DNA of 25,404 nt, taken from IMG/VR virus record IMGVR_UViG_3300035698_025845, positions 1-25,404 of that record, one strand, 5' to 3'. This DNA comes from a virus. Made by a program: the position numbers and the translations under genes. Of the stretch, positions 1,942-23,436 are shown in pieces (positions within the stretch are counted from its first letter, which is position 1; each line of letters starts with the position of its first letter). The notes under the pieces are model-generated. The model saw nothing but the letters and a program-made list of their open reading frames with translations. It was not told the origin of the DNA and ran no database searches.

Positions 1942-1984
1942 AAAAAAACTGCCTAAAGCATAACATAATGCTCTAGGCGGTTTT
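1942..1984 (-). terminator. Intrinsic terminator overlapping the recombinase stop codon
   Basis: The arms 1945-1961 and 1968-1984 form a 17-position stem with one mismatch and one G-U, and a 6-base loop. On the minus strand it is followed by a run of U (the A-run at 1942-1948). The stop codon of the 1953-3587 gene (1953-1955) and its last ten codons lie inside the hairpin. T-rich sequence also follows it on the plus strand (1981-1991), so it may work in both directions. Confidence 0.8.
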
Positions 1985-3587
1985 CTATTTTTCTGACTAT
2001 GTAATTTACAAATAAAGACTTGGTTTTTAACAGTCCACTGCATTCGACATGTTTAATTCTAAACTCAATATTATTTTTGTTAATGACTGTGATTGATTTG
2101 ATTAACTCTCCAAGCAGAGAATCAAAATCGTTACTTTTTGCTTGCTTTAGTAAAATATTATTTATCGTGTTTTTCACTTGTTCAGGTTGGTAGGTTTTGG
2201 ATAGCTGATTGTTGATTGATGGTAGTTCTAGACTTGAATCATTTAGCTCATTATTGATTTCTTCCATCACTTTTAGTTCAAACTCGTTAATTGGATCAAG
2301 GAGTTGTTGCTTCTTTGCTTGTAAGCCGAGAATTTTGGCTTCAGTGGCTTCTTTAACAAGGAGTAAACTAAGTCTTTGCGGATTTGATTCAACAGCCTTA
2401 TAAACTAAGTTTAAGAAGTCTTTTTTATTACTTATAATGTATTTCAACTGATTTAGAATTGCCTTGTCTAAGATACTTACTGAAATGTTTTCACCTGGAC
2501 ATGTTTTAATCATTTTGTTGGAAGGACACATCATCATGTTTCTTGAGTATTCAGAGTTTGTGTTCTTTTTTCTGCGAATATAACTTTTACCGCAATATGG
2601 ACATTTTAACATCCCTGCATATTTGGTATGCTGATTGTACATGTCTTTATCAATCTTTTCAGAAGTAATATGATGAAACTTTTCAATTTGAGCTTTTCTG
2701 ATTTCTTGAGCTTTATTAAATAGTTCTTGGGTGACAATTGGCGGGTGAGAGTTTTCCACATAATACATGGGTAACGTTTCGTTTTTTACTTTGAGTTTTG
2801 CTTTAAAAGAAGGTCTAACTGTTTTTTGAAGGAGTGCATTACCCGTATATTTCTCATTCTTTAATATGTTATAAATCGCATTACCATACCATTTACCTTT
2901 GTTGTAAGTGGTTTTTATATTGTTTGAATTTAAGTGTCTGATAATTTCACTAACACCAATACCTGTCGTATACATCTCGTATATCTTTCTAACAACTGCA
3001 GCTTCATCTTCGTCAATAACCAGGTTCCTATCTTCATCATATTTATATCCAAGGAATCCTTTTGCTACAATATAGAACTTACCTTCAGAGAACCTCTTTC
3101 TAACATTCCATTTAACGTTTTCACTCACATTTCTTGCTTCTTCCTCAGCCATACCAGAAAGCACAGAGATGACGAATTCAATCTTAGGGTCAAAGGAACT
3201 AATATTCTCATTTTCAAACCACACCTCAACTTTTGCTTGCTTTAAGTTCTGAAGGATAGTGATTGTGTCCACAACGTTTCTTGAAAACCTGGAGATTGAT
3301 TTGGTAATGATGAGATCAATGAGTCCACTTTTAGCCATTCCAATCATTGTTTGAAATTGGGTTCTCTTACTCATGTTAGTTCCGGATTTGCCCTCATCAG
3401 CAAATACGCCTATGAAATTCCAGTCTGATCGCTCCATGATCATCTTTGTGTATGTTTGGACCTGGGTATCAAAGCTTAAGTGAGCAACATCTTTTAATGT
3501 TGAAACTCTAGCATACGCGCATACATTTTTCTTACGTACCTGATTATCAATTAGTGTTTCAATCGATGTGATTTCTCTAATGTCCAT
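1953..3587 (-). CDS. Large serine recombinase (second of a pair), 544 aa
   Basis: This is a site-specific recombinase of the resolvase/invertase superfamily, large serine type, expected to cut and join attachment sites through a phosphoserine link. The catalytic domain is at about residues 20-165: YARVS places the nucleophile at Ser29, followed by DEGKSGT and the ITKSISRFSRN arginine motif. A recombinase domain with KGFLGYKYD and NEKYTGNALLQK follows, then a zinc ribbon (KCPYCGK with two later cysteines) and a lysine-rich, probably coiled C-terminus. The usual STDxxxQ after the serine is altered to STLKDVAHLS. Its start lies within the end of the upstream recombinase gene (11-base overlap), implying coupled translation. 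Paired large serine recombinases recall ccrA/ccrB. It could be a partner subunit rather than an independent integrase. Confidence 0.93.
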   Translation of the reverse strand: MDIREITSIETLIDNQVRKKNVCAYARVSTLKDVAHLSFDTQVQTYTKMIMERSDWNFIGVFADEGKSGTNMSKRTQFQTMIGMAKSGLIDLIITKSISRFSRNVVDTITILQNLKQAKVEVWFENENISSFDPKIEFVISVLSGMAEEEARNVSENVKWNVRKRFSEGKFYIVAKGFLGYKYDEDRNLVIDEDEAAVVRKIYEMYTTGIGVSEIIRHLNSNNIKTTYNKGKWYGNAIYNILKNEKYTGNALLQKTVRPSFKAKLKVKNETLPMYYVENSHPPIVTQELFNKAQEIRKAQIEKFHHITSEKIDKDMYNQHTKYAGMLKCPYCGKSYIRRKKNTNSEYSRNMMMCPSNKMIKTCPGENISVSILDKAILNQLKYIISNKKDFLNLVYKAVESNPQRLSLLLVKEATEAKILGLQAKKQQLLDPINEFELKVMEEINNELNDSSLELPSINNQLSKTYQPEQVKNTINNILLKQAKSNDFDSLLGELIKSITVINKNNIEFRIKHVECSGLLKTKSLFVNYIVRKIENRLEHYVML

Positions 3588-5286
3588 CTTTGCCCTTGTC
3601 CATTTCTATAAGTCTCCAATTAATTTCATTACCATCATGAGTATAAGTGCCATTTAAGATGGGGAGATATTTTTTATATTTTTCTATTTCATCTCCAAAA
3701 TTAATAAATTCATCATCCGAACTTGAGGTTAGAAAGATAACTTCTGTTGGGGATGTGACAATGATTTTTTTTACCAGCATCATTAGTGCTTCCCTGCTGA
3801 TGATGTTTTGCTTTTCTTCTAAGAAGCTTTTGAGCTGAATGATGCGTTCCTTATTTAAATGTGAATCCATAAGTTTTGATTTGTAATCACTTAGTGTTTG
3901 ATTGAGTCTTTTGAGTTCAGCTTTTTTATCTAAAAATACGGATTGATAATATTTGTCATCATCTGTAGAAGTGCTTGATATTCTAAGCTGAATTAAATTT
4001 TTAATTTCATTTTCGATTGCTATGACTTGATGCTCTGCAGATTCAATCTGTTCTTTAATGATTGGCTGCGTTAGATTAGATTCTAGAAGTAGAAGTGTTT
4101 GATTCATAATCTCAGGTGCTTCTGAGTTGATTTCATGAAAGACATACGCACTCAGTGTTTCTAATAATTGATTATCAATTGGCGTGTTAGAACAACTGCA
4201 GTGTTGCTCCCTGCCATTCTTACAGCTTAATACAATTCTGTTATAGCTCGTATTTGGATTGTAGTGCTGTCTATTCATTTTTCTATGACAAATCCCACAA
4301 TAGACAATGCCACTTAAAGGATATCTATTGGCAAACCTAGAAGAACCCTGCTGCATGCTGCGTTCCTTTTTAATATTTTGTACAATCATAAAAAGTTCTT
4401 TAGAAATGATCGGTTCATGATTATTTGTTATGTAATATTTAGGTGCTTGGCCAGTGTTTACAACTGATTTATGTGTTAGATAGTCTATGGTGACTCTTTT
4501 TTGCAAAATGACGTCTCCTGAGTATTTCTCATTGGTCAGGATAGACATAACAGTCGCTGGTTTCCAGAAAACCTCACCACGTCCATTTTTGATGTTGTTA
4601 TCTGTTAACATATTCGCTATATCCCTGGTTGATGAACCAGATAGATAAAGGTTAAATATTATTTTGATAATCTTGGCTTCCTCTACGTTAATAATAATCT
4701 TTTTATTTTCATCTTTGTCATAACCTAAAAATCTTTTTGTATTGATATGAACAATCCCTTCTTTAAATCGTTTTCTAAATCCCCATTTGACGTTCTCACT
4801 GATGTTTCTTGATTCTTCTTGAGCAATCGATGAAAATATTGTCAGCATAAAATCCACTTTAGGATCACTTGAGTATAGATTCTCTTTTTCAAAGAAGATC
4901 TCAACACCAACACCTCTAAGCTCTCTAATCATGGTTAGGCTATCGACAGTGTTTCTAGCAAAGCGTGAAATTGACTTTGTTAAGATTAAATCAATCTCTC
5001 CTTCTTTAGCATCATCGATCATCTTTAGAAACTGCAATCTTTTTTTCGTGCTCGTTCCAGATAAGCCCTCATCAGCGTACATCCCTTGAAATATCCATAG
5101 TTGGTTTTCGTTAATAAGTCTCGTGTATTCATGAATTTGTGCTTTGTAACTATTGATCTGATCTTCTTGATCTGTAGAGACGCGTGCGTAGGCGCATACC
5201 CTTTTCTTTTTGATCCCTTGAGATGCACCAAGATCAACACTATGTAATATAGGGTTAATCACGGTGACTTTGCGTTCTATCATCAT
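3577..5286 (-). CDS. Large serine recombinase (first of a pair), 569 aa
   Basis: The protein has all signs of a large serine recombinase: YARVSTDQEDQ with the nucleophile at Ser37, DEGLSGT, LTKSISRFARN, a recombinase domain with KRFLGYDKD and NEKYSGDVILQK, a zinc ribbon (YCGICHRK, then paired cysteines) and a C-terminal helical region with coiled-coil character. AAGGAGG ends six bases before the first ATG, supporting that start; a second ATG follows at once. It leads a two-gene unit with the 544-residue paralogue, which shares the same architecture but is clearly diverged. A short peptide gene and the phage repressor lie upstream on the same strand, the usual setting of a phage integration module. 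The attachment site would be expected near this block. Confidence 0.94.
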   Translation of the reverse strand: MMIERKVTVINPILHSVDLGASQGIKKKRVCAYARVSTDQEDQINSYKAQIHEYTRLINENQLWIFQGMYADEGLSGTSTKKRLQFLKMIDDAKEGEIDLILTKSISRFARNTVDSLTMIRELRGVGVEIFFEKENLYSSDPKVDFMLTIFSSIAQEESRNISENVKWGFRKRFKEGIVHINTKRFLGYDKDENKKIIINVEEAKIIKIIFNLYLSGSSTRDIANMLTDNNIKNGRGEVFWKPATVMSILTNEKYSGDVILQKRVTIDYLTHKSVVNTGQAPKYYITNNHEPIISKELFMIVQNIKKERSMQQGSSRFANRYPLSGIVYCGICHRKMNRQHYNPNTSYNRIVLSCKNGREQHCSCSNTPIDNQLLETLSAYVFHEINSEAPEIMNQTLLLLESNLTQPIIKEQIESAEHQVIAIENEIKNLIQLRISSTSTDDDKYYQSVFLDKKAELKRLNQTLSDYKSKLMDSHLNKERIIQLKSFLEEKQNIISREALMMLVKKIIVTSPTEVIFLTSSSDDEFINFGDEIEKYKKYLPILNGTYTHDGNEINWRLIEMDKGKDGH

Positions 5287-6875: not shown

Positions 6876-7811
6876 ATGCTCGAAAAAGAGAGGTTTAAGG
6901 AACTCACCCAAAAATATCTAGAATATCTAGATGTGAAGATTCCTACTAAGATAACCTATGCGAGGATCCTTCGTCAATACGTCGATTATGTAGACACACT
7001 ATCTGATTTACCAACTCGTAGTGATGTTATGGCATATAGAGAGAAACTTAGAACAAGAAAATTGAGCGCAACAACGATTGCGTTACACATGGTCATCATC
7101 CGGAATTTTTATAGATGGTTTCATATTGAAGGATATGGTTCAAGTGTTGCAGAGGGGATTAAAAGTCCTAAAATTGAAAAAGAATTCAAACGTTCAGCAT
7201 TAACAGAAGAACAATCAAAAAGACTTCTTCAATTTGCTTATAAAAAATCTAGTAGTTCAATTATTGATTTTAGAAACTATACCTTAGTATCTTTAATGAT
7301 TACAACAGGTATGAGAACCATTGAGGTAGAAAGGGCAGATAAATCAGATATTAGCGAATTAGACGGCGGATATGTGTTATTTGTTATGGGTAAAGGAAAA
7401 GATACTAAAAATGCAGTCATTAGGTTATCACCACAAGTCTATGACTTAATTGAGGCCTATATTATTATACGAAACGATCAAGCAGAACCATTATTTATTA
7501 ATCACAAGGGCATATACGCACATAATCGTATGGTAACAAGAAATATTCGGTTTGTTATTAAAGAAATGTTTAGGGATATCAATATCGATGATAAGCGCTA
7601 TTCAGCTCATAGTTTGAGACATACCACGGCCACTTTGTCACTTGATGAAGGCGCCGGCACAGATGAAGCACAGTTGCTCTTAAGACATTCAGATCCAGCA
7701 ACAACCAAGCTTTACTTGCATCGTAAAAGAAAAAAAGATGGTTTTTACGAATATAAGATTAGTGATAATTTGTTTGATTTTTTAGTAGTTGAAAAGGAAG
7801 AAAAGGAATAA
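6876..7811 (+). CDS. Tyrosine recombinase (phage integrase family), 311 aa
   Basis: This is a XerC/D-like site-specific recombinase that would act through a 3'-phosphotyrosine link. Residues 1-95 form a SAM-like N-terminal DNA-binding domain (ITYARILRQYVDYV, LSATTIALHMVIIRNFYRWF). The catalytic residues are visible: Arg147 in TGMRTIEV, Lys173/175 in GKGKDTK, His245-x-x-Arg248 in AHSLRHT, His271 in LLLRHSDPATT and Tyr280 in TKLYLH. AGGTG lies six bases before the ATG. It sits between the Cro-like gene and the antirepressor on the early strand, not in the lysogeny block, and the element already encodes two serine recombinases. It may serve genome dimer resolution, a second integration pathway or a nested element. 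Confidence 0.93.
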   Translation: MLEKERFKELTQKYLEYLDVKIPTKITYARILRQYVDYVDTLSDLPTRSDVMAYREKLRTRKLSATTIALHMVIIRNFYRWFHIEGYGSSVAEGIKSPKIEKEFKRSALTEEQSKRLLQFAYKKSSSSIIDFRNYTLVSLMITTGMRTIEVERADKSDISELDGGYVLFVMGKGKDTKNAVIRLSPQVYDLIEAYIIIRNDQAEPLFINHKGIYAHNRMVTRNIRFVIKEMFRDINIDDKRYSAHSLRHTTATLSLDEGAGTDEAQLLLRHSDPATTKLYLHRKRKKDGFYEYKISDNLFDFLVVEKEEKE

Positions 7812-10544: not shown

Positions 10545-10561
10545 AATTGAGGGGAAAATTT

Positions 10562-11764
10562 ATGAGCAAAAAAACCAATGGAGTAAATGATGAATTTTAC
10601 ACGCCAGCAGAAACAATCATAAATGAATTGAAATGGTATGGATATGATGGAGAATTCAAAGGTAAGACGGTATATCTACCATGTGATTTTGATGCAACGT
10701 TACCATATTTGAAAAAAGAAATAAAACATGTCAAGACAATTGATGGTTTTTTAGAATTTAATGAGGAAGTTATTATTTATAAAGTTATGCCAGAACTTTT
10801 TACTGAAAAAGACAAAAATAATACACCAAGAAATTGTCAATTCGTTGCATATTTAACGGAACACAAAGAAGATTTTCACATAAAAGATATTTTCATAAGT
10901 GGATTTGATGCAATTACTGGTAAGGGGTTAAGATTTCAAGATGCCCCATTTGAGCAATTTGATGTAATAATTACAAACCCACCCTTTTCACAAATGAATG
11001 AATGGATTAATAAAATTATCGAGTTTAAAAAAACAGGTGGAGAATTTCTGTTCTTAGCTCCTTTGTCAATTCTTACAAATACTTTTGCCTTCCCCTACTT
11101 TAAGGGCCAGGATTTATGGTGTGGATATACTGAACCTAGCAAATATGAAGATGCAAAAGGTAATTTAGTTTCTCAATATTTGCCATCTGTATGGTTAACC
11201 AATTTTGATGTTAAGAAACATAAACTTAAAAGGATACTAACGAAAAGTTGGAAAGATAAACCTGATGAGTTTATGCCTTATTGGAACTATGAAGCAATAA
11301 ATGTACCAAGTGTAATTGATATACCTTATGACTATTCTGATGTATTTGGAGTTCCAGCAACCATGCTGAAGGATTTGCATCCCGATCAATTTGAGATTAT
11401 TGGTCTTGGTCAAGGGAAAGAACAATTTCAGTCATTGCCTGGATGGATAGACAGGTCTAATTGGACATTTAAGGATTATATGGAATATGCTGATACTCCA
11501 AAGACTGCACATAGTTTTGATGTATCTAGTCTGCTAATAATCTCAAAAGACCTTATTAATCCCTATAAGGCACCATTTTGCAAAGTTCTGTTAAAGAATA
11601 AAGAATTGATTGAGGGAAGAGAATATTACACTTACAAAGATGTAGTTAGTTTTGTCGAAGATCAATCTAAGATAAAATCGCCTGATGATATATGGAATCC
11701 TAAATTATTCAAAACACGAGGGAATCAAAAAGCCAAACAAGGTAAAGGAGATGGAAAAAAATGA
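10562..11764 (+). CDS. EcoRI-type adenine-specific DNA methyltransferase, 400 aa
   Basis: This enzyme would transfer a methyl group from S-adenosylmethionine to adenine N6 in a specific DNA site. The N-terminus (NGVNDEFYTPAETIINELKWYGYDGEFKGKTVYLPCDFD) follows the pattern of the EcoRI methylase family. The catalytic motif is FDVIITNPPFSQ with NPPF at residues 139-142. The C-terminal 200 residues, rich in aromatic residues, probably carry target recognition. I chose the ATG at 10562 because GAGGGG lies seven bases upstream; the TTG at 10547 is part of that site. It is longer than M.EcoRI (326 residues). Its stop overlaps the ATG of the DUF262-HNH gene by four bases (ATGA), so the two are translationally coupled and probably form a restriction-modification unit. 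Confidence 0.88.
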   Translation: MSKKTNGVNDEFYTPAETIINELKWYGYDGEFKGKTVYLPCDFDATLPYLKKEIKHVKTIDGFLEFNEEVIIYKVMPELFTEKDKNNTPRNCQFVAYLTEHKEDFHIKDIFISGFDAITGKGLRFQDAPFEQFDVIITNPPFSQMNEWINKIIEFKKTGGEFLFLAPLSILTNTFAFPYFKGQDLWCGYTEPSKYEDAKGNLVSQYLPSVWLTNFDVKKHKLKRILTKSWKDKPDEFMPYWNYEAINVPSVIDIPYDYSDVFGVPATMLKDLHPDQFEIIGLGQGKEQFQSLPGWIDRSNWTFKDYMEYADTPKTAHSFDVSSLLIISKDLINPYKAPFCKVLLKNKELIEGREYYTYKDVVSFVEDQSKIKSPDDIWNPKLFKTRGNQKAKQGKGDGKK

Positions 11765-12945
11765 AAAGAGAAATCACAAGTTTTTCAGTTGAAGAAATAA
11801 CAAAACTGATTAAGCTGAACCCTGCTACACTGGAAACATTACCTGACACTATAATTAAAGTAAATATTGAATATCAGCGTGGCGTAATCTATTCAGCAGA
11901 AAAGCAAGCCGCAGTACTTGAAAGTATTATTAAGGATTTTGCAATTCCCTCTATAGTACTTTGGAAAAACATTGAAGATGATACCTATGATGTTATTGAT
12001 GGAAAACAAAGATTAACAAGTATATTTTTATTTTTAAGTGGAAATCTTCAAATTAATTACATCGGAAATACGAAAAAATATTATTCTCAAATTAGTGAAG
12101 TTGACAAAAAGAAAGTCAAAGAATATCAAATACCATTTATTATAATGAGTGGAACAAAAGAAGAAGAGCATTTTAAACATGAATTGTTTGAAATCTTAAA
12201 TATAACAGCAGAGAGTTTAAATAAATGGGAATTACTGCAAGGATCTTATTATGGAAATTTTTTGAACACGTTCAAAGAAGAAATTCAGAATCCATTAAAT
12301 GTTGAAATTCAAAATGATTTTAATTTTAGAGATAAGAGTGTACCAGCAAGAGCTAGATATTCTGGGGTTTATAAGTTACTGTTAATTCATCTTGATTCAG
12401 AAAATGAAATAAAAAAATTCGTGGAAACCCATCGAGAAGATAGTGGACAATTATTCTACAATAAGGAAATAAAGAGTGTCTTAACAGAAATTAGTAAATT
12501 GCCTGAACCTAGAAATGTTGCAATTTATTATGAGATAATAAGAGAAATATTAGGAGATAATACAAAATATAAGAATTACAATTCAAAAAGAAATGAAGTA
12601 ATTACGGACTTAAAAGGTTTCTATGCTGAAAATGTTTATACGAAAATTACTGGAAATGATTTAAGAATCGTACTTAGAAATATATTTGGATTAGAGTGTG
12701 GTTTTGTAGAATTGGACCCAAAAAGGATTTTTAACCAAACTGATAGGGATGACTTGTATAAAATTTATGATGCCAAAAGAAAAACCGAAAATGGATTAGT
12801 TCGGTGCCCTAAATGTGGTAAACTTTTTGACCATAAAGCAATGCATATTGATCACGTAATACCTCACAAACTAGGAGGAAGAACGGAACTAGTTAATGCG
12901 CAATTTTTATGTTCACATTGCAATCCAAGCAAAGGCACAAACTAA
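11761..12945 (+). CDS. DUF262 + HNH nuclease, probable restriction enzyme, 394 aa
   Basis: The N-terminal domain is of the DUF262 (GmrS/ParB-like) type: YQRGVIYSAEKQAAVLESIIKDF (from residue 39) and the hallmark YDVIDGKQRLTSIFLFL with DGKQR at 80-84, thought to bind or hydrolyse nucleotides in this family. The C-terminus is an HNH nuclease with zinc-binding pairs: CPKC (349-352), HIDHVIPHKLGG with the catalytic His365 region, Asn379 in LVNAQFLC, and CSHCN (384-388). GmrSD, BrxU and SspE join DUF262 to a DUF1524-type HNH; here the HNH is the short, zinc-ribbon type. It starts inside the stop of the EcoRI-type methylase. Most characterised DUF262 nucleases cut modified DNA; the cognate methylase suggests this one cuts unmodified DNA, which is inference. 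Confidence 0.88.
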   Translation: MKREITSFSVEEITKLIKLNPATLETLPDTIIKVNIEYQRGVIYSAEKQAAVLESIIKDFAIPSIVLWKNIEDDTYDVIDGKQRLTSIFLFLSGNLQINYIGNTKKYYSQISEVDKKKVKEYQIPFIIMSGTKEEEHFKHELFEILNITAESLNKWELLQGSYYGNFLNTFKEEIQNPLNVEIQNDFNFRDKSVPARARYSGVYKLLLIHLDSENEIKKFVETHREDSGQLFYNKEIKSVLTEISKLPEPRNVAIYYEIIREILGDNTKYKNYNSKRNEVITDLKGFYAENVYTKITGNDLRIVLRNIFGLECGFVELDPKRIFNQTDRDDLYKIYDAKRKTENGLVRCPKCGKLFDHKAMHIDHVIPHKLGGRTELVNAQFLCSHCNPSKGTN

Positions 12946-16081: not shown

Positions 16082-17212
16082 ATGCAAAGAATAACGAGTG
16101 AATCTGTTTTTAGTGGACATCCTGATAAAGTCTGTGACCAAATCAGTGATGCTATTTTAGATGCAATATTAGAACAGGATAAAGAATCAAGAGTAGCGGT
16201 TGAAACAGCTATAAAAGATAATTTTGTTTTTATCTTTGGTGAGGTAACAACAACAGCTTATATTAACTATAAAGCAGTAGCGAAAACTGTACTTAAAGAT
16301 ATTGGATATGACGATGAGTTTGTTGTTATGGAACTCATCAGTAAACAATCACCAGATATTGCGATTGGTGTAAATGAATCATCATCTAAAGAACAAGGTG
16401 CAGGTGATCAAGGGATCATGTTTGGTTACGCATGTAATGAGACAAAAGAATTGATGCCACTACCAATCATTCTTGCACATCGAATTTCAAAAGGTATAGA
16501 TAAAGCAAGAAAAGAAAAATACGGACATATTTTTGGACCAGATGGTAAATGTCAAGTTAGTGTTGATTACAAAGATGGCAAACCACATAGCATTCCTATA
16601 GTTGTTGTTTCTGCACAAACCAAGCCTGGAGTAACAAGGGAAGAATATGAAAAAATCATCATGGGTATTGTGTTAAACTCAATGGATCAAGAAGATCTAA
16701 TCAAAAAAACAAAGATCTTGATAAATCCAACAGGGGAGTTTGTGATTGGCGGTCCTAAAGCAGACTCAGGATTAACAGGCAGAAAGATTATTGTTGATAC
16801 GTATGGTGGATACTCCAAACATGGAGGAGGTTCTTTCTCAGGAAAGGACGTAAGCAAGGTTGATCGCAGTGCGGCTTATTATGCCAGATACGTAGCAAAA
16901 GCCGTTGTAGCGGCAAATTTAGCGACACACTGCGAAGTTAGTTTAAGCTATGTGATTGGGAAAGCTGATCCAACAAGTATACTGATAAATACTTTTGATA
17001 CAGGCGTTACCGGTGATGATGAAATACAAAGTTTAGTTGAGTTTGTGTTTAACTTCAAACCAGGATCAATAATAAAAGAACTTGAGCTAAGCAATGTCAA
17101 GTTTAAAGAGTTAGCAAAATATGGTCATTTTGGCAGAGTTGATTTGCCTGTTAGATGGGAGCATGTTAAAGATAAAGCAGCTCTATTAAAACGATTTTAT
17201 GAAAAAACCTAA
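16082..17212 (+). CDS. metK: S-adenosylmethionine synthetase (methionine adenosyltransferase), 376 aa
   Basis: This enzyme makes S-adenosylmethionine from methionine and ATP. The family signatures are intact: GHPDK (12-16), GAGDQGIMFGYA (106-117), GGGSFSGKD (248-256) and the following DRSAAY, and the length is close to the usual 380-400. AGGAGGAG lies six to seven bases before the ATG. The gene lies in phage context, between small phage genes and an HNH nuclease whose start overlaps its end by 14 bases, so it is phage-borne rather than the host housekeeping copy. The window carries two DNA methyltransferases that would use its product. It may also offset S-adenosylmethionine depletion by phage or host enzymes. 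I see no missing catalytic residue. Confidence 0.96.
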   Translation: MQRITSESVFSGHPDKVCDQISDAILDAILEQDKESRVAVETAIKDNFVFIFGEVTTTAYINYKAVAKTVLKDIGYDDEFVVMELISKQSPDIAIGVNESSSKEQGAGDQGIMFGYACNETKELMPLPIILAHRISKGIDKARKEKYGHIFGPDGKCQVSVDYKDGKPHSIPIVVVSAQTKPGVTREEYEKIIMGIVLNSMDQEDLIKKTKILINPTGEFVIGGPKADSGLTGRKIIVDTYGGYSKHGGGSFSGKDVSKVDRSAAYYARYVAKAVVAANLATHCEVSLSYVIGKADPTSILINTFDTGVTGDDEIQSLVEFVFNFKPGSIIKELELSNVKFKELAKYGHFGRVDLPVRWEHVKDKAALLKRFYEKT

Positions 17213-17483
17213 GGTCTTACACAACTTCTATAAGTCTGCAGAATGGCAATTAGCAAGACAATTAAAAATCACGCAAGTCAATGGCAAGTGTGAACGATGT
17301 GGTGCTGTAGGACAAGAAGTGCATCATATGGTAAGACTTAATATAGAAAATGTTAAGGATGCTTCAATAAGCATTAATCAAGAAAACTTAGAATTGCTTT
17401 GTAAAGATTGTCATAATAAAGAACATGATAGGTTTAAATCTATACAAGAATTTGATGATGATGGAAACTTAATTTCTAGATAA
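17199..17483 (+). CDS. Phage HNH endonuclease, 94 aa
   Basis: The small protein FYKSAEWQLARQLKITQVNGKCERCGAVGQEVHHMVRLNIENVKDASISINQENLELLCKDCHNKEHDRF has the complete HNH fold: zinc pairs CERC and CKDC, the HH of VHHMVRL and the Asn of NLELLC followed by CHNKEH. This kind of HNH gene usually stands directly before the small terminase in cos-type HK97 phages, where it assists terminase in cutting the genome. Here about 2.9 kb separates it from TerS, filled by the PIN and kinase genes. It starts inside the end of metK, overlapping by 14 bases, so the two are probably translated together. Confidence 0.92.
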   Translation: MKKPKVLHNFYKSAEWQLARQLKITQVNGKCERCGAVGQEVHHMVRLNIENVKDASISINQENLELLCKDCHNKEHDRFKSIQEFDDDGNLISR

Positions 17484-17505
17484 CCTCGAATAAATCATAC
17501 AAATT

Positions 17506-17514
17506 TGATATAAT
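17506..17514 (+). promoter_or_regulatory. Extended -10 promoter of the PIN-like gene
   Basis: TGATATAAT is a perfect TGnTATAAT. Transcription would begin near 17521, one base before the AGAGGTG ribosome binding site, leaving a leader of only about 16 nt. No clear -35 is needed for extended -10 promoters. Confidence 0.6.
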
Positions 17515-17536
17515 CAACTAAAAGAGGTGACACTTT

Positions 17537-18820
17537 ATGAATAAAAAAGTAATTGTGTTTGACACAAATGCGCTATTAGATATTTATCAATATACAAATC
17601 AAACCATAGAGCAAATTGTTAATTTTTTTCAAAGTCAAAGTGAGTATGACTTGTATATTTCATCTTTTGTACATGAAGAATTCAAAAATCATTATTTAGA
17701 GGCCCGTAGTAAGAGTGGTAATAGAAACCCTATACTTAAATTTAAATCTAAATTCAATGGTTTTCATAATTCAACATCAGTAAAAATAAATGATTTGATA
17801 AATGATAAATCATATAAAGGCTATAAGACTAATATCGAAGCAGGACTTATTGATCTAAGAGAAAAGGTATCGGTAGGGTTGAATGATCTAAAAAATGAAA
17901 TAGAAAGCTTGTATAGTATCGAAGATATCGGTTATTCTGGAGATGATTTAATATCTGATTTAGTTAATAGTGTGTACGCTAAATGCAATGCTAACAAATA
18001 TAATATTCATGAAAAAATATTCATGTCCATTATTGCTGACCAACGAATCAAGTTAAACCTAAGACCGGGACTTACGGATTTGAAAAAAGAAGGATTTAGG
18101 AAATATAGTGATATATTTATATGGTTGGATTTAATAAAAATCTCAAAAGACTATGATGAAGTTGTATTTATTGAGAATGAAATAAAAAAAGACTGGTGGG
18201 AAAATGATAGTTACAAAGAACCTGCTGATAATATAGTTAGAGAATGGGAAGACTTATTTGACGAGAAGAAGACTCTCACTATGATTAGGCTAGATGCTTT
18301 ACTGATTAGTCAAGCCGAAGCTTATTTAGATGGTGATGCACAATTAGAAATTACTCGATTAGCATCTGAATTTCTCAAATCAATAAAAACCAAATCGATG
18401 TTTTTGAACTTACCTGTTAATGATAGACTAGGTGACTTTGCACCAAATGATATTGACTTCATTTTGTTGGGAGAAGAACTAAATGGAGGGAATATTGATG
18501 AAATTGAAGTTTTAGAAATGTTAGAACCTGAAACGTTGACTAATGATGTGAGATTTCAATATGATAGTACCACAAGAACACTCTTTGCCGAAACTCAGGT
18601 GAAAGTACCATATATTGTTAACGTGATTAATTCATTTGGAAGATATTCAACGCCAGAATATTATCATGGAACAGTGTATATTACTTTTAACTGTGAATTT
18701 GAGTTCTACTTAATTACTAATAATGACCTAGAGTATTACTTGAATTCTGTTAGATATGATATACATAAAACAAGTGTTGATATTAATGAGTTGAAGGCAT
18801 CGAACGTGTATGATGATTAG
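17537..18820 (+). CDS. PIN-like (DUF4935/PIN_8 type) protein with C-terminal extension, 427 aa
   Basis: PIN-like proteins are metal-dependent RNases. The first strand VIVFDTNALLDIYQY carries Asp9 and Asn11; SSFVHEEFKNHY gives Glu47/48; and LRPGLTDLKKEGFRKYSDIFIWLDLI plus VVFIENEIKKDWW (209-221) match the PIN_8 signature PPGxxD...YGDLIIW...FVTDDxKxDWW, with GD changed to SD and TDD to ENE. Residues after about 230 form an extension with an acidic linker and a beta-rich end. GAGGTG lies seven bases before the ATG and an extended -10 promoter precedes it. Similar PIN proteins occur in phage-defence islands. It is inserted between the HNH and small terminase genes with a kinase-like gene, and probably acts as accessory cargo. 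The altered acids may weaken or retune activity. Confidence 0.8.
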   Translation: MNKKVIVFDTNALLDIYQYTNQTIEQIVNFFQSQSEYDLYISSFVHEEFKNHYLEARSKSGNRNPILKFKSKFNGFHNSTSVKINDLINDKSYKGYKTNIEAGLIDLREKVSVGLNDLKNEIESLYSIEDIGYSGDDLISDLVNSVYAKCNANKYNIHEKIFMSIIADQRIKLNLRPGLTDLKKEGFRKYSDIFIWLDLIKISKDYDEVVFIENEIKKDWWENDSYKEPADNIVREWEDLFDEKKTLTMIRLDALLISQAEAYLDGDAQLEITRLASEFLKSIKTKSMFLNLPVNDRLGDFAPNDIDFILLGEELNGGNIDEIEVLEMLEPETLTNDVRFQYDSTTRTLFAETQVKVPYIVNVINSFGRYSTPEYYHGTVYITFNCEFEFYLITNNDLEYYLNSVRYDIHKTSVDINELKASNVYDD

Positions 18821-18924
18821 CCCCCCCTAGTCTTAGCAAGATATTTTTGTTGGGTACCGTACAGGTGGGCAATTAAAATACACAAGGCATAATTTTTGAA
18901 AATTAGGAATTGAGGGTCAGTTAT
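18821..18924. other. Gap with C7 run between PIN-like and kinase genes
   Basis: A run of seven C directly follows the TAG stop of the PIN-like gene, unusual in this AT-rich DNA, and a relatively GC-rich GGGTACCGTACAGGTGGG follows at about 18852-18869. CATAAT at 18888-18893 is a weak -10. This may mark a junction of the insertion. Confidence 0.35.
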
Positions 18925-20418
18925 ATGATTGAGAAGGAATCTTTTTATAAATTTATTGATTATCTTTATGAACATTTTCTTGTAGAAAAATCAGACGAAA
19001 CTAATTGGGTTTATTCTGGTTTCATTTTTGATTATATATATGAAAATGGAATATATAAGGATGAGTATTTTTCAGTAGAAGATTATTTTTACATCAAAGT
19101 TGGAATGCAATATGATGAATCAATAGATTTACATCAGTATTTTAATGATAAATCCGAAGATAAAATCATTTTATTTATTGAGAGTATTTATAACTTATTC
19201 GACAAATTTGGCGACAATGAAAAGTACCAAAGTTTTTGTAATAAAATCATTAAAATGTTGAATAGAAACAGTCTAAACATTTTGTCAGACACAATTTACT
19301 CAAGAATCATATCGAGCAATTCAACTAAAGAAGGATATTTTTGTGTAGTTGAATTTATTAACGATTTTATTGTAAGGAAAAAATTAAAACCACATATGAT
19401 TTCTGATGATACAATAAGTCGCTTCAAACATGAATACAAAATGATGGAAAAATTATCTCAAAACACTAAGTTTTTGAAAGTGTATGATTATAACCAAGAA
19501 ACGAATAGTTATTTTATGGATCGTTGCGATATGGATTTGTACGATTATCTAAAAGAAAACAAGTTGGATGAAAAGAGAAAAGTTGAGTTAATTAAACAAA
19601 TGATTGATTTAATGGACGTTGCATATGGACAAAAAATAATTCATAGAGATTTACATCTTGGAAATTTGTTGGTCCGTGGAAGTCAACTTTTCATATCTGA
19701 TTATGGTCTTGCAAAAGACAGCGATGTCAAACGCTCGCTTATCTCTTCGACAGGACCCAAAAACGATCACTTTTTTGTTTCACCTGAAGGTATGAAAGAT
19801 ATAAAGCAAGTAGATGTTAGAAGTGACATTTACTCCATTGGAAAAATTATTGATTACATAATGGGGAATGGAATATTGGGCACAAATCATTTTTTGTTAC
19901 CCGTAGTTCACAAGTGTATAATGATAGAAAAAAGCGACAGGTACTCAGATTATAAGTCACTGATTCATGCTCTCAACAATATCATTGATGTAACTACAAA
20001 TGGGCAAAATCATTTGTTGGTGCTGAATAACATCATTAATGGTGAGTGTAATGAGCTTGAAGTGCAATTTCTAATGGATTTGTCAGAACATGCAATAATT
20101 GCAAAGTTTTTGGTTGATAATCACTTGAAAAATTTCCATACAGTTTTTAATAAACTTCAATATTCATTACAGTTGAACATGATTGATTCAATTGCTGCTC
20201 ACTTTGTGGATGCCACGGGATACGGCCAATTCCAAAATTACGACATTTTTGGAGAGTTTGCATATCAAATCATTCTTAATGGCAAAGTTCAAACAGATAT
20301 TTTAATTAAAGCTGCTAATATTTTGAAAGTCTGTGCAGGATATAGATTTTCATTTAAAGATAAACTCGATTCATTACAGCTAAACCCCAAAGTAAACAAC
20401 TCAATATTTAATAATTGA
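18925..20418 (+). CDS. Protein-kinase-like protein with helical flanks, 497 aa
   Basis: A eukaryotic-type Ser/Thr kinase domain lies at about residues 135-350: a possible ATP-binding lysine in FIVRKKLKP (153/155), Glu170 of helix C, the catalytic loop IIHRDLHLGNLLV (HRD at 240-242), the metal-binding DYG (259-261) in place of DFG, SPEG (286-289) in place of APE, and VDVRSDIYSIGKI with Asp301. Residues 1-130 are helical and may sense or bind a partner; the C-terminal 140 residues also look helical. No membrane segment or PASTA repeat is seen, so it is not the PrkC type. The ATG at 18925 has GAGGG eight bases upstream; TTG at 18910 is part of that site. It follows the PIN-like gene and its stop overlaps the TerS region. 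Phage defence or exclusion is the likeliest role. Confidence 0.85.
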   Translation: MIEKESFYKFIDYLYEHFLVEKSDETNWVYSGFIFDYIYENGIYKDEYFSVEDYFYIKVGMQYDESIDLHQYFNDKSEDKIILFIESIYNLFDKFGDNEKYQSFCNKIIKMLNRNSLNILSDTIYSRIISSNSTKEGYFCVVEFINDFIVRKKLKPHMISDDTISRFKHEYKMMEKLSQNTKFLKVYDYNQETNSYFMDRCDMDLYDYLKENKLDEKRKVELIKQMIDLMDVAYGQKIIHRDLHLGNLLVRGSQLFISDYGLAKDSDVKRSLISSTGPKNDHFFVSPEGMKDIKQVDVRSDIYSIGKIIDYIMGNGILGTNHFLLPVVHKCIMIEKSDRYSDYKSLIHALNNIIDVTTNGQNHLLVLNNIINGECNELEVQFLMDLSEHAIIAKFLVDNHLKNFHTVFNKLQYSLQLNMIDSIAAHFVDATGYGQFQNYDIFGEFAYQIILNGKVQTDILIKAANILKVCAGYRFSFKDKLDSLQLNPKVNNSIFNN

Positions 20419-20429
20419 TGGAAGTTAAA

Positions 20430-20762
20430 ATGCAAAAAAAACAAATAGCGATCGAGTATGAGCGACTTAGATCGCTTTTTTCATCGGTTGATGAGAATAA
20501 AACAAAACTAGTTGATAGCCTTATTGGACAAGCAGCATTCATGAAGATCGAGCTTGGAATTCTTCAAGAACAGATTCGTAAGTACGGTTCAGTCCAGGTA
20601 TCTAACAAAGGCTCACAACGGCAGACAGAATCCGCAAAGTATTATACCAAACTAATTAATTCATATGGTACAGTTATTAAAACACTCAATTCAATCATGG
20701 GTAAGAACGTCCAAGAAAGCGACGATGCATTTGATGAATTTCTTAAAAGAACAAGCGAATGA
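20430..20762 (+). CDS. terS: Phage terminase small subunit (P27-like), 110 aa
   Basis: The small subunit binds the packaging site and loads the large subunit. The protein is helical and charged: IEYERLRSLFSSVDENKTKLVDSLIGQAAFMKIELGILQEQIRKYGSVQVSNKGSQRQTESAKYYTKLINSYGTVIKTLNSIM, which follows the P27-family pattern. Its stop overlaps the start of the large subunit (ATGA). I prefer the ATG at 20430 with GGAAG five bases upstream. An ATG at 20418 overlaps the kinase stop, and the TTG at 20415 is less likely. The close join to the kinase gene suggests the cargo was inserted just before the original ribosome binding site. The usual neighbour HNH gene is displaced upstream. Confidence 0.85.
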   Translation: MQKKQIAIEYERLRSLFSSVDENKTKLVDSLIGQAAFMKIELGILQEQIRKYGSVQVSNKGSQRQTESAKYYTKLINSYGTVIKTLNSIMGKNVQESDDAFDEFLKRTSE

Positions 20763-22422: not shown

Positions 22423-23436
22423 ATGAATTATTTTAATGAAAATATAATGAGGATTATAGGGGAATTTAATAAAAAAATTAATTTTCCTATTTTTAATGTT
22501 AGTGTAGAATATAATGATAGTATTGTGGAATGCTATATTGACTATTTGGATGATAAAAATGAAGAACAGGTATATTACAGTAGCTTCGATAACTTATCAA
22601 AGATTAGTGATGAAAACATTGATATATCTGAGAATGAGCTAAAGATAATTGAAAAAATATTCAGTAAAAAATATGGTTTGCAATATGAGATACAAGGAAT
22701 TAAGAAATATAAAGATCCACATCTGTATGTAATCATTTATAAGGATTTCAGTGGAAACAGCATGCTAGCAATTTATGACAGAGAAAAAAGACAATTCAGT
22801 GATTTTTTGAATTATCAAAAATATATATCCTTTGAGATATTAAGTTTGTATCTTCAGTTTAATAATTGGTACCAATTATACTTTTATCATGAAGGAAGTT
22901 ATAGCAATATAAATGGACAAAAAATGGCTTGTTATGCAATTAATAAAGCGATGGATAACTATGGCATTGTGCCCAGTAACTTTGATGAACTGTATGAGAG
23001 TGATGGGGATTTGGATTATAAAACATTATGGGATAGTGGAAAACTATATCCGGATGTCGATTTACGAGTTGTTGATAATTTCCGATGTTTATTTACTGAA
23101 AGATCTCAATATAGTTATGGTGATGGATTTGAATGCGAAGAAATTTTTAGAAAAATCAGAAGAAAACAATATAACTTAATTAGAGAGAAACACAAGGTTA
23201 AGAATCTTGATTTTAATAATGAAACCAAATTCATACATTATGTCTACTCAACCTTAAAAGTATATAAAGAACAATTGAATACTGAAAAAGTAAAAATAAG
23301 TATAGAAAAAATAACTAAAATATGTGGGCAAATGAAAAGCAAGCAAATGAGAGACATTCTTGATTATTTAGTTGAAAATCATAAAGTTTCAATCTCCAAA
23401 GCATCACAAGGCTATTATTATAATGTATTAGAATAA
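22423..23436 (+). CDS. Unrecognised cargo protein between terL and portal, 337 aa
   Basis: I do not recognise the family. The protein is very rich in Tyr, Asn, Ile and Lys and uses many ATA codons, visibly more AT-rich than the terminase and portal genes beside it. It has no membrane segment or signal peptide. The middle contains YSNINGQKMACYAINKAMDNYGIVPSNFDELYESDGDLDYKTLWDSGKLYPDV; the last 75 residues (KISIEKITKICGQMKSKQMRDILDYLVENHKVSISKASQGYYYNVLE) resemble a winged helix. GGGGTG five bases before the ATG supports the start, and an extended -10 promoter covers the terL stop. Genes rarely stand between terL and portal in this phage type, so it is probably a moron. Defence, exclusion or regulation are all possible. 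Confidence 0.7.
   Translation: MNYFNENIMRIIGEFNKKINFPIFNVSVEYNDSIVECYIDYLDDKNEEQVYYSSFDNLSKISDENIDISENELKIIEKIFSKKYGLQYEIQGIKKYKDPHLYVIIYKDFSGNSMLAIYDREKRQFSDFLNYQKYISFEILSLYLQFNNWYQLYFYHEGSYSNINGQKMACYAINKAMDNYGIVPSNFDELYESDGDLDYKTLWDSGKLYPDVDLRVVDNFRCLFTERSQYSYGDGFECEEIFRKIRRKQYNLIREKHKVKNLDFNNETKFIHYVYSTLKVYKEQLNTEKVKISIEKITKICGQMKSKQMRDILDYLVENHKVSISKASQGYYYNVLE

What the first reader, a model, noticed from the sequence alone, without database searches (positions are those of the whole stretch)
17484..20418. PIN-like RNase and protein-kinase pair inserted between HNH and small terminase
HNH and TerS are normally neighbours in this phage type; here about 2.9 kb of cargo separates them. The cargo has its own extended -10 promoter and encodes a PIN_8-type protein with a long extension and a kinase with helical N- and C-terminal regions. 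A kinase could control the RNase, giving a sensor-effector pair for abortive infection or superinfection exclusion. The pairing itself is not one I know as a named system.
Basis: partly seen in the sequence, partly recalled or inferred. Interest (0 to 1): 0.7.

Follow-up and report, generated by a model that had tools for sequence, protein, structure and literature searches.

The report
Two swappable defence slots in phages
The nuclease gene and the kinase gene are not a matched pair: they are two separate, probably anti-phage, passenger genes sitting in two slots on either side of a conserved DNA element (probably the phage's packaging site), and related phages swap the contents of each slot independently.

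Summary
The PIN_8 gene (17537-18820), the kinase gene (ATG 18925-20418) and the extended -10 promoter are real. The "pair inserted between normal neighbours" reading fails. In this phage clade (TerL at least 75% identical) 60 of 62 distinct HNH-TerS intervals carry cargo; HNH and TerS touch mainly in distant relatives. The site is bipartite: one conserved non-coding element (C-run, then GGTACCG; window 18821-18905), probably cos, lies in 59 of 60 cargo-bearing intervals, here exactly between PIN stop and kinase start. Slot A (HNH-element) has a resident promoter: perfect TGNTATAAT in 57 of 60 against about 1% expected. Slots reassort: of 1711 interval pairs 33 share slot A only, 27 slot B only, 0 both. 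The kinase is a divergent Stk2 relative; a sister phage carries canonical Stk2 in slot A without PIN. None of 14 genomes with Stk2-like kinases has PIN_8 on the same contig; none of 16 other PIN_8 loci has a kinase nearby. Most likely: two single-gene superinfection-defence passengers in a cos-flanking two-slot site, a new variant of the P2/P4 cos-adjacent hotspots. Defence activity and cos identity are inferred.

The parts
17199..17483 (+). HNH endonuclease gene, left border of the cargo site
   Evidence: Pfam HNH 9e-8; conserved border in relatives
17506..17514 (+). resident extended -10 promoter TGATATAAT of slot A
   Evidence: perfect TGNTATAAT within 120 nt of the HNH stop in 57 of 60 distinct intervals; shuffles 1.5%, interval interiors 0.9%; TerL-portal site 3 of 51 and HNH-TerS-adjacent relatives 0 of 7
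17537..18820 (+). slot A cargo: PIN_8-type ribonuclease-like protein, 427 aa
   Evidence: PIN_8 1.5e-25; D9, E48, D192, D219 conserved among 11 relatives; model residues 3-264 align with VapC/PIN chains, Z about 8
18821..18905 (.). conserved non-coding element, candidate cos (packaging) site: C-run 18821-18827, GGTACCG 18853-18859, A/T-rich TTTTTGAAAAT
   Evidence: one copy in 59 of 60 cargo intervals, fixed spacing; shuffles 0.03%
18925..20418 (+). slot B cargo: divergent Stk2-like Ser/Thr kinase, 497 aa
   Evidence: PADLOC Stk2 1.7e-57 over 51-490; alignment A4
20415..20762 (+). small terminase, right border of the cargo site
   Evidence: phrog_1066 6.5e-29 (unknown function by name), directly followed by TerL; conserved in relatives

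Best explanation
The 2.9-kb region is two cargo slots of a temperate, HK97-like phage clade, not one inserted operon. Slot A lies between HNH and a conserved non-coding element that is probably cos; it is served by a resident extended -10 promoter and here holds a PIN_8 ribonuclease gene. Slot B lies between the element and TerS and here holds a divergent Stk2-type kinase gene. Each slot is refilled independently by recombination among related phages. The likely function is superinfection defence from the lysogen: the kinase as an Stk2-like single-gene abortive-infection sensor and effector, and the PIN protein as a stand-alone RNase effector. Shown: the slots, the element, the promoter motif and the reassortment. 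Inferred: cos identity, promoter activity, anti-phage activity, and mechanism from relatives.
For: Cargo between HNH and TerS in 60 of 62 distinct clade intervals, 455-4861 bp. Element in 59 of 60, with the slot A stop codon close to it (1-42 nt from the GGTACCG start in 55 of 59). Promoter in 57 of 60 against 3 of 51 at the TerL-portal site. Reassortment: 33 pairs share A only, 27 B only, 0 both, of 1711. Known or candidate defence families in both slots: PDC-M68A/B in slot A of L165, LmuB in slot B of L090, bSEFIR in slot B of L088, PDC-S49 in slot B of L096, Stk2 in slot A of L067/L147. Kinase to Stk2 1.7e-57. P2/P4 precedent of defence hotspots next to cos (PMC9122126, passages).
Against: No experiment. 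Contig ends do not mark a cut site: only L169 ends inside the element. Dereplication merged 3 pairs of near-identical intervals before the sharing count, and exact copies were collapsed, 92 to 69. Most slot proteins have no recognised function, and the comparison set of 49 non-slot ORF families also gave PADLOC matches such as R-M proteins and PDC-S14, so I claim no numerical enrichment. The kinase's glycine-rich loop is degenerate, so it may be inactive or regulated differently.
Confidence: 0.78

Rival explanations
1. Functional pair: the kinase senses infection and switches on (or off) the PIN RNase, giving a two-gene abortive-infection or toxin-antitoxin module.
For: They are neighbours on the same strand and may be co-transcribed from the slot A promoter; no strong promoter lies between them. 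PMC13092281 (passages) reports a PIN protein that needs a second gene for defence (DS-5).
Against: A conserved element that separates unrelated cargo in 59 of 60 intervals lies between them. Stk2 without PIN in a sister phage. 0 of 14 genomes with both on one contig. 0 of 16 PIN loci with a kinase in the flank held. Slot contents never shared as pairs.
Confidence: 0.08
2. The cargo is lysogenic-conversion or phage-physiology genes rather than defence; the PADLOC resemblances are incidental.
For: Most slot families have no annotation; PADLOC also matches non-slot ORFs of these phages; PDC families are only candidate systems.
Against: Long matches to bSEFIR (5.2e-83), LmuB (2.3e-116), Stk2 (best 5.9e-151) and PDC-M68B (2.6e-88) in the slots, and Shedu and Uzume proteins at the neighbouring TerL-portal site.
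Confidence: 0.15
3. The conserved element is not cos but a recombination or regulatory site (e.g. a site-specific recombination target, or an RNA or operator element) that organises the slots.
For: Contig ends do not pile up at the element. Its length, fixed spacing and A/T-rich inverted motif could suit other functions.
Against: It lies between HNH and TerS, also in a relative without cargo there (L167). A similar C-run plus ACCG stretch is part of the short HNH-TerS gap of phages phiCD08011 and CBP1. cos between HNH and TerS is recalled for HK97.
Confidence: 0.25

Closest known systems
[quoted passage not shown] 2022, PMC9122126; passages read)
   Same: hypervariable cargo next to a packaging site, with many known or candidate defence systems; the authors speculate that cohesive ends drive exchange
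   Different: here the slots flank the candidate cos on both sides and reassort independently, a resident extended -10 promoter fronts slot A, nearly all cargo is co-directional (161 of 164 ORFs), and the phages are a different, HK97-like clade whose TerL is nearest to Clostridioides and other Firmicute phages; cos not mapped
Stk2 anti-phage kinase of Staphylococcus (original paper not held, recalled; review PMC6532042 passages; single-locus remark in PMC11341870 passage)
   Same: full-length profile match, catalytic Lys, HRD and Asp present, stand-alone kinase gene
   Different: 25-29% identical to Stk2-like kinases here, degenerate glycine-rich loop, DYG for DFG, carried by a phage
Stand-alone PIN defence protein DS-3 (PMC13092281, passages)
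   Same: single PIN ribonuclease-type protein without antitoxin
   Different: no sequence comparison made; DS-3 has a split PIN domain, P0001 an N-terminal PIN_8 domain with an unmodelled C-terminal half
HNH-cos-TerS packaging modules of HK97 and Staphylococcus cos phages (Kala 2014, Quiles-Puchalt 2014: titles seen in reference lists; content recalled)
   Same: HNH and TerS flank the element
   Different: two cargo slots have opened on either side of it

Membership tests
Stk2 kinase family | full-length profile match including the C-terminal region outside the kinase domain | tested here: met
   PADLOC PDLC02375 1.7e-57, residues 51-490 to 34-486 of 500; PknB-type kinases match only about 130-317 at about 110 bits
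Stk2 kinase family | active-site residues: Lys, HRD, Asn, DFG | tested here: met
   K157/K158, H245 R246 D247, N252, D264-Y-G266 aligned; DYG instead of DFG
Stk2 kinase family | intact glycine-rich loop | tested here: inconclusive
   only the last Gly (G142) and V146 are kept; the model is poor there, residues 1-147 pLDDT under 50
Stk2 kinase family | activation by a phage protein and host killing | not testable with these tools
   needs phage and strain work; reported for Staphylococcus
PIN_8 (PF18476) | profile above curated cut-off | tested here: met
   90.9 bits against 26.1
PIN_8 (PF18476) | acidic catalytic residues | tested here: met
   D9, E48, D192, D219 invariant or at least 90% among 11 relatives; which residues are catalytic is recalled from PIN domains in general
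PIN_8 (PF18476) | ribonuclease activity | not testable with these tools
   no assay
PIN-kinase pair system | the two genes recur together | tested here: not met
   1 of 14 distinct genomes with a Stk2-like kinase has any PIN_8, on another contig; 0 of 16 other PIN loci has a kinase in the flank held; L067 has Stk2 and no PIN
cos-adjacent defence hotspot (P2/P4 kind) | conserved borders with variable content | tested here: met
   62 distinct clade intervals; 98 protein families in 59 intervals, 74 in one interval only
cos-adjacent defence hotspot (P2/P4 kind) | known defence families among the cargo | tested here: met
cos-adjacent defence hotspot (P2/P4 kind) | adjacent to a proven cos site | tested here: inconclusive
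   conserved element between HNH and TerS; physical ends not shown
cos-adjacent defence hotspot (P2/P4 kind) | anti-phage activity of the cargo | not testable with these tools
   no assay

The most novel reading that the evidence does not exclude
The site is a cos-centred two-arm exchange device. Because slot A ends and slot B begins at the cohesive ends of the linear virion genome, co-infecting phages with compatible ends can be joined end to end in trans, so that left-end and right-end passengers are dealt out independently, while a resident promoter at the left border expresses whatever lands in slot A. Defence diversification would then be coupled to genome entry and packaging itself.
Probability: 0.35. 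Interest if true: 0.8.

Novelty: new variant of a known kind. Interest (0 to 1): 0.62.

Why it matters
It replaces a speculative pair with a predictive anatomy: borders (HNH, element, TerS), a resident promoter and two independently filled slots. That makes the phage clade a ready catalogue of candidate single-gene or small-operon defence systems: 98 protein families in 59 intervals, many without annotation. It also turns the idea voiced for P2/P4, that cohesive ends drive the exchange of defence genes, into a test: exchange on the two sides of cos should be independent, as seen here. And it warns that neighbouring genes in such sites should not be read as one system merely because they are adjacent.

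Tried and rejected
Pairing of PIN and kinase: tested by co-occurrence in genomes, plasmids, phages and the clade, and rejected as the leading reading. Kinase as an ordinary PknB/PrkC housekeeping kinase: rejected, since those match the Stk2 profile only in the kinase domain. Contig ends as proof of cos: tried with an element scan and by inspecting open ends, gave nothing beyond L169. Own promoter for slot B: perfect TGNTATAAT in 4 of 51, rejected as a general feature. Numerical enrichment of defence families over other phage ORFs: the comparison set (49 families) itself held accessory R-M genes, so not claimed. Structure search of the PIN model: Foldseek gave no match at E 0.001 or better; the VIA second look gave PIN/VapC chains at Z about 8 among unrelated helical rows, so supportive only. 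The C-terminal half of the PIN protein (261-427) stayed unmodelled. Close relatives of P0001 in viral contigs and phage records: none. Host of the phage: not determined; an IMG-number literature search gave nothing. Literature: PIN_8 with phage defence, PIN domain with Stk2, hotspot searches and PIN/kinase/abortive infection showed, in their listings, no description of this site or pair in the open-licence library; subscription papers were not searchable. Other papers looked into by passages only, of little bearing: PMC6105707, PMC5052747, PMC6739421, PMC11087260, PMC12373285.

Full report
What is there. The window is an IMG/VR virus record of 25,404 bases. Between the HNH gene (17199-17483) and the small terminase gene (20415-20762) lie two same-strand genes. 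The first, 17537-18820, encodes a 427-residue protein with a Pfam PIN_8 domain (1.5e-25, residues 5-228). Its acidic residues D9, E48, D192 and D219 are invariant or nearly so among 11 relatives, and its modelled part (1-260) aligns with VapC-type PIN chains at Z about 8 (Foldseek itself gave nothing at E 0.001). The second, best started at ATG 18925 and ending at 20418, encodes a 497-residue kinase. It matches the PADLOC Stk2 model over nearly its whole length (1.7e-57, residues 51-490), including the C-terminal region that ordinary PknB-type kinases do not match. It keeps the catalytic Lys, HRD and Asp (as DYG), but its glycine-rich loop is degenerate. It is 25-29% identical to the Stk2-like kinases aligned with it.

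Is the neighbourhood unusual? A search with the large terminase gave 211 confirmed relatives in IMG/VR, of which the tool kept the best 80 (82-100% identical); a search with the HNH protein gave 59. Of the loci that hold both HNH and TerL, window included, there are 92; these give 69 different HNH-to-TerS intervals and 66 clusters at 85% identity over 70% of length. Four clusters are distant (TerL 29-34%), and in them HNH is followed directly by the terminase genes. Of the other 62, 60 carry 455-4861 bp of cargo between HNH and TerS; two (L167, L170/L171) have HNH and TerS adjacent and cargo between TerS and TerL instead. In the named phage phiCD08011 (TerL about 40%) HNH and TerS are about 84 bp apart.

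The site has two slots. In 59 of the 60 cargo-bearing intervals there is exactly one copy of a non-coding element: a run of C, then GGTACCG mostly 31-33 nt after the start of that run, then a G-rich and an A/T-rich stretch; L173 is the exception. Shuffled intervals contain the C-run plus GGTACCG in 0.03% of 3000 trials. ORFs hardly ever cross it (two, of 55 and 58 aa). The cargo on its left usually ends with a stop codon close to it. In the window it lies at 18821-18905: the C-run begins at the base after the PIN stop codon, and the kinase start follows. Slot A (HNH to element) is filled in 59 of 59; slot B (element to TerS) in 48 of 59, not counting a recurrent small family (DUF3846-like/62-aa).

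The slots are filled independently. Among 1711 pairs of the 59 intervals, 33 share a slot A protein family only, 27 share a slot B family only and none share both. The dereplication had merged three pairs of near-identical intervals beforehand and exact copies were collapsed, so recent common ancestry is not counted. Eleven pairs share a family across slots, among them the Stk2-type kinases: slot B in the window, slot A in L147 (the same contig as L067), where no PIN gene is present. The L067 kinase is the canonical one (best Stk2 E-value among 94 cargo proteins 5.9e-151; assigned to L067 because the window's own value is 1.7e-57).

A resident promoter. A perfect extended -10 motif TGNTATAAT stands within 120 nt after the HNH stop in 57 of 60 intervals; the expectation is 1.5% from shuffles and 0.9% from interval interiors. 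The exceptions are L163, L148 and L165. At the second variable site between TerL and portal the same kind of test (100 nt) gives 3 of 51, and in seven relatives with HNH and TerS adjacent 0 of 7. Phages with different cargo share the promoter sequence up to the ribosome-binding site (listing). Slot B shows no such resident motif (4 of 51).

The two genes elsewhere. None of seven genomes with Stk2-like kinases found by the genome scan has a PIN_8 protein. Of nine genomes tested (two of them repeats), one has one, on another contig: together 1 of 14 genomes, 0 on the same contig. Two of the 14 (G604, G083) are weaker kinase relatives, two (G165, G332) have interrupted genes and one (G064) a split one. 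In a sample of 398 Bacilli, three genomes have a P0001-like protein; one of them also has a partial Stk2-profile match, 2.9 Mb away. Sixteen other PIN_8 loci, from plasmids, genomes and viruses, have no kinase within the flank held, with short flanks for L046-L048 and truncated ends for L052 and L058; among their neighbours the only similar genes are those of the near-identical pair L051/L057, a two-gene set shared by L049 and L052, and one weak match.

What the slots carry. PADLOC scans of representatives found Stk2, Lamassu-type LmuA/LmuB, bSEFIR and candidate families PDC-S31, M68, M41, S32, S49 and S11 (only the first 25 of 97 and of 50 matching models are listed). Named cases: L165 slot A, PDC-M68A plus PDC-M68B; L081/L138 slot B, an Argonaute-associated REase-like protein plus PDC-M68B; L096 slot B, PDC-S49; L088 slot B, bSEFIR; L090 slot B, LmuB (L102, L149 and L161 gave none). 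The TerL-portal site gave Shedu, Uzume and PDC-S31. A comparison set of 49 non-slot ORF families also gave matches, chiefly restriction-modification proteins and PDC-S14/S11, so these phages carry defence-like genes elsewhere too, and I claim presence, not enrichment.

How it probably works. The element sits where cos is expected between HNH and TerS (recalled for HK97; HNH proteins as packaging factors, PMC9611059 passages). Related stretches with a C-run and ACCG make up part of the short HNH-TerS gap in phiCD08011 and CBP1. If it is cos, slot A and slot B are the two ends of the linear virion genome. Rousset et al. [quoted passage not shown] the independent exchange on the two sides seen here fits that idea. 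The kinase would act as in Staphylococcus, where Stk2 is activated by a phage protein and causes cell death (PMC6532042 passage) and is a single-locus system (PMC11341870 passage). The PIN protein would act alone as an RNase effector; a single-protein PIN system that protects has been reported (DS-3, PMC13092281 passages). None of these activities is shown here.

Verdict. The finding is real in its parts, its pairing is not supported, and the better description is a two-slot, promoter-fronted cargo site around a candidate cos element: a new variant of the cos-adjacent defence hotspot.

Noticed in passing
window 22423-23436 and TerL-portal interval of relatives: A second variable site lies between TerL and portal (67 distinct intervals, 16 of them 30 bp or less); cargo in relatives includes Shedu SduA, UzuA and PDC-S31. 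The window's 337-aa protein there has no significant family match.
   Followed up: partly
window 10547-12945: EcoRI-type adenine methylase directly followed by a GmrSD_N-HNH protein: a possible further defence module; no homologue in the TerL loci as fetched, whose flanks are often short.
   Followed up: no
window 1953-5286 (-) and 6876-7811 (+): Two overlapping large serine recombinases resembling staphylococcal Ccr proteins lie beside a tyrosine integrase.
   Followed up: no
window 16082-17212: A SAM synthetase gene (MetK) stands next to HNH and is conserved across the clade, with a ParB-N6/N4 methylase upstream.
   Followed up: no
L167:8778-10247 and L171:8749-10221: Two relatives keep HNH and TerS adjacent and instead carry a 490/491-aa plus a 59-aa ORF between TerS and TerL.
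   Followed up: partly
L157:8001-12703: After HNH and a 196-aa protein with a HELGH motif only a short TerS match remains, followed by minus-strand genes including a 549-aa protein that looks like a DUF2326/AAA-type ATPase (my reading, no profile run): perhaps a decayed or recombined prophage end.
   Followed up: no
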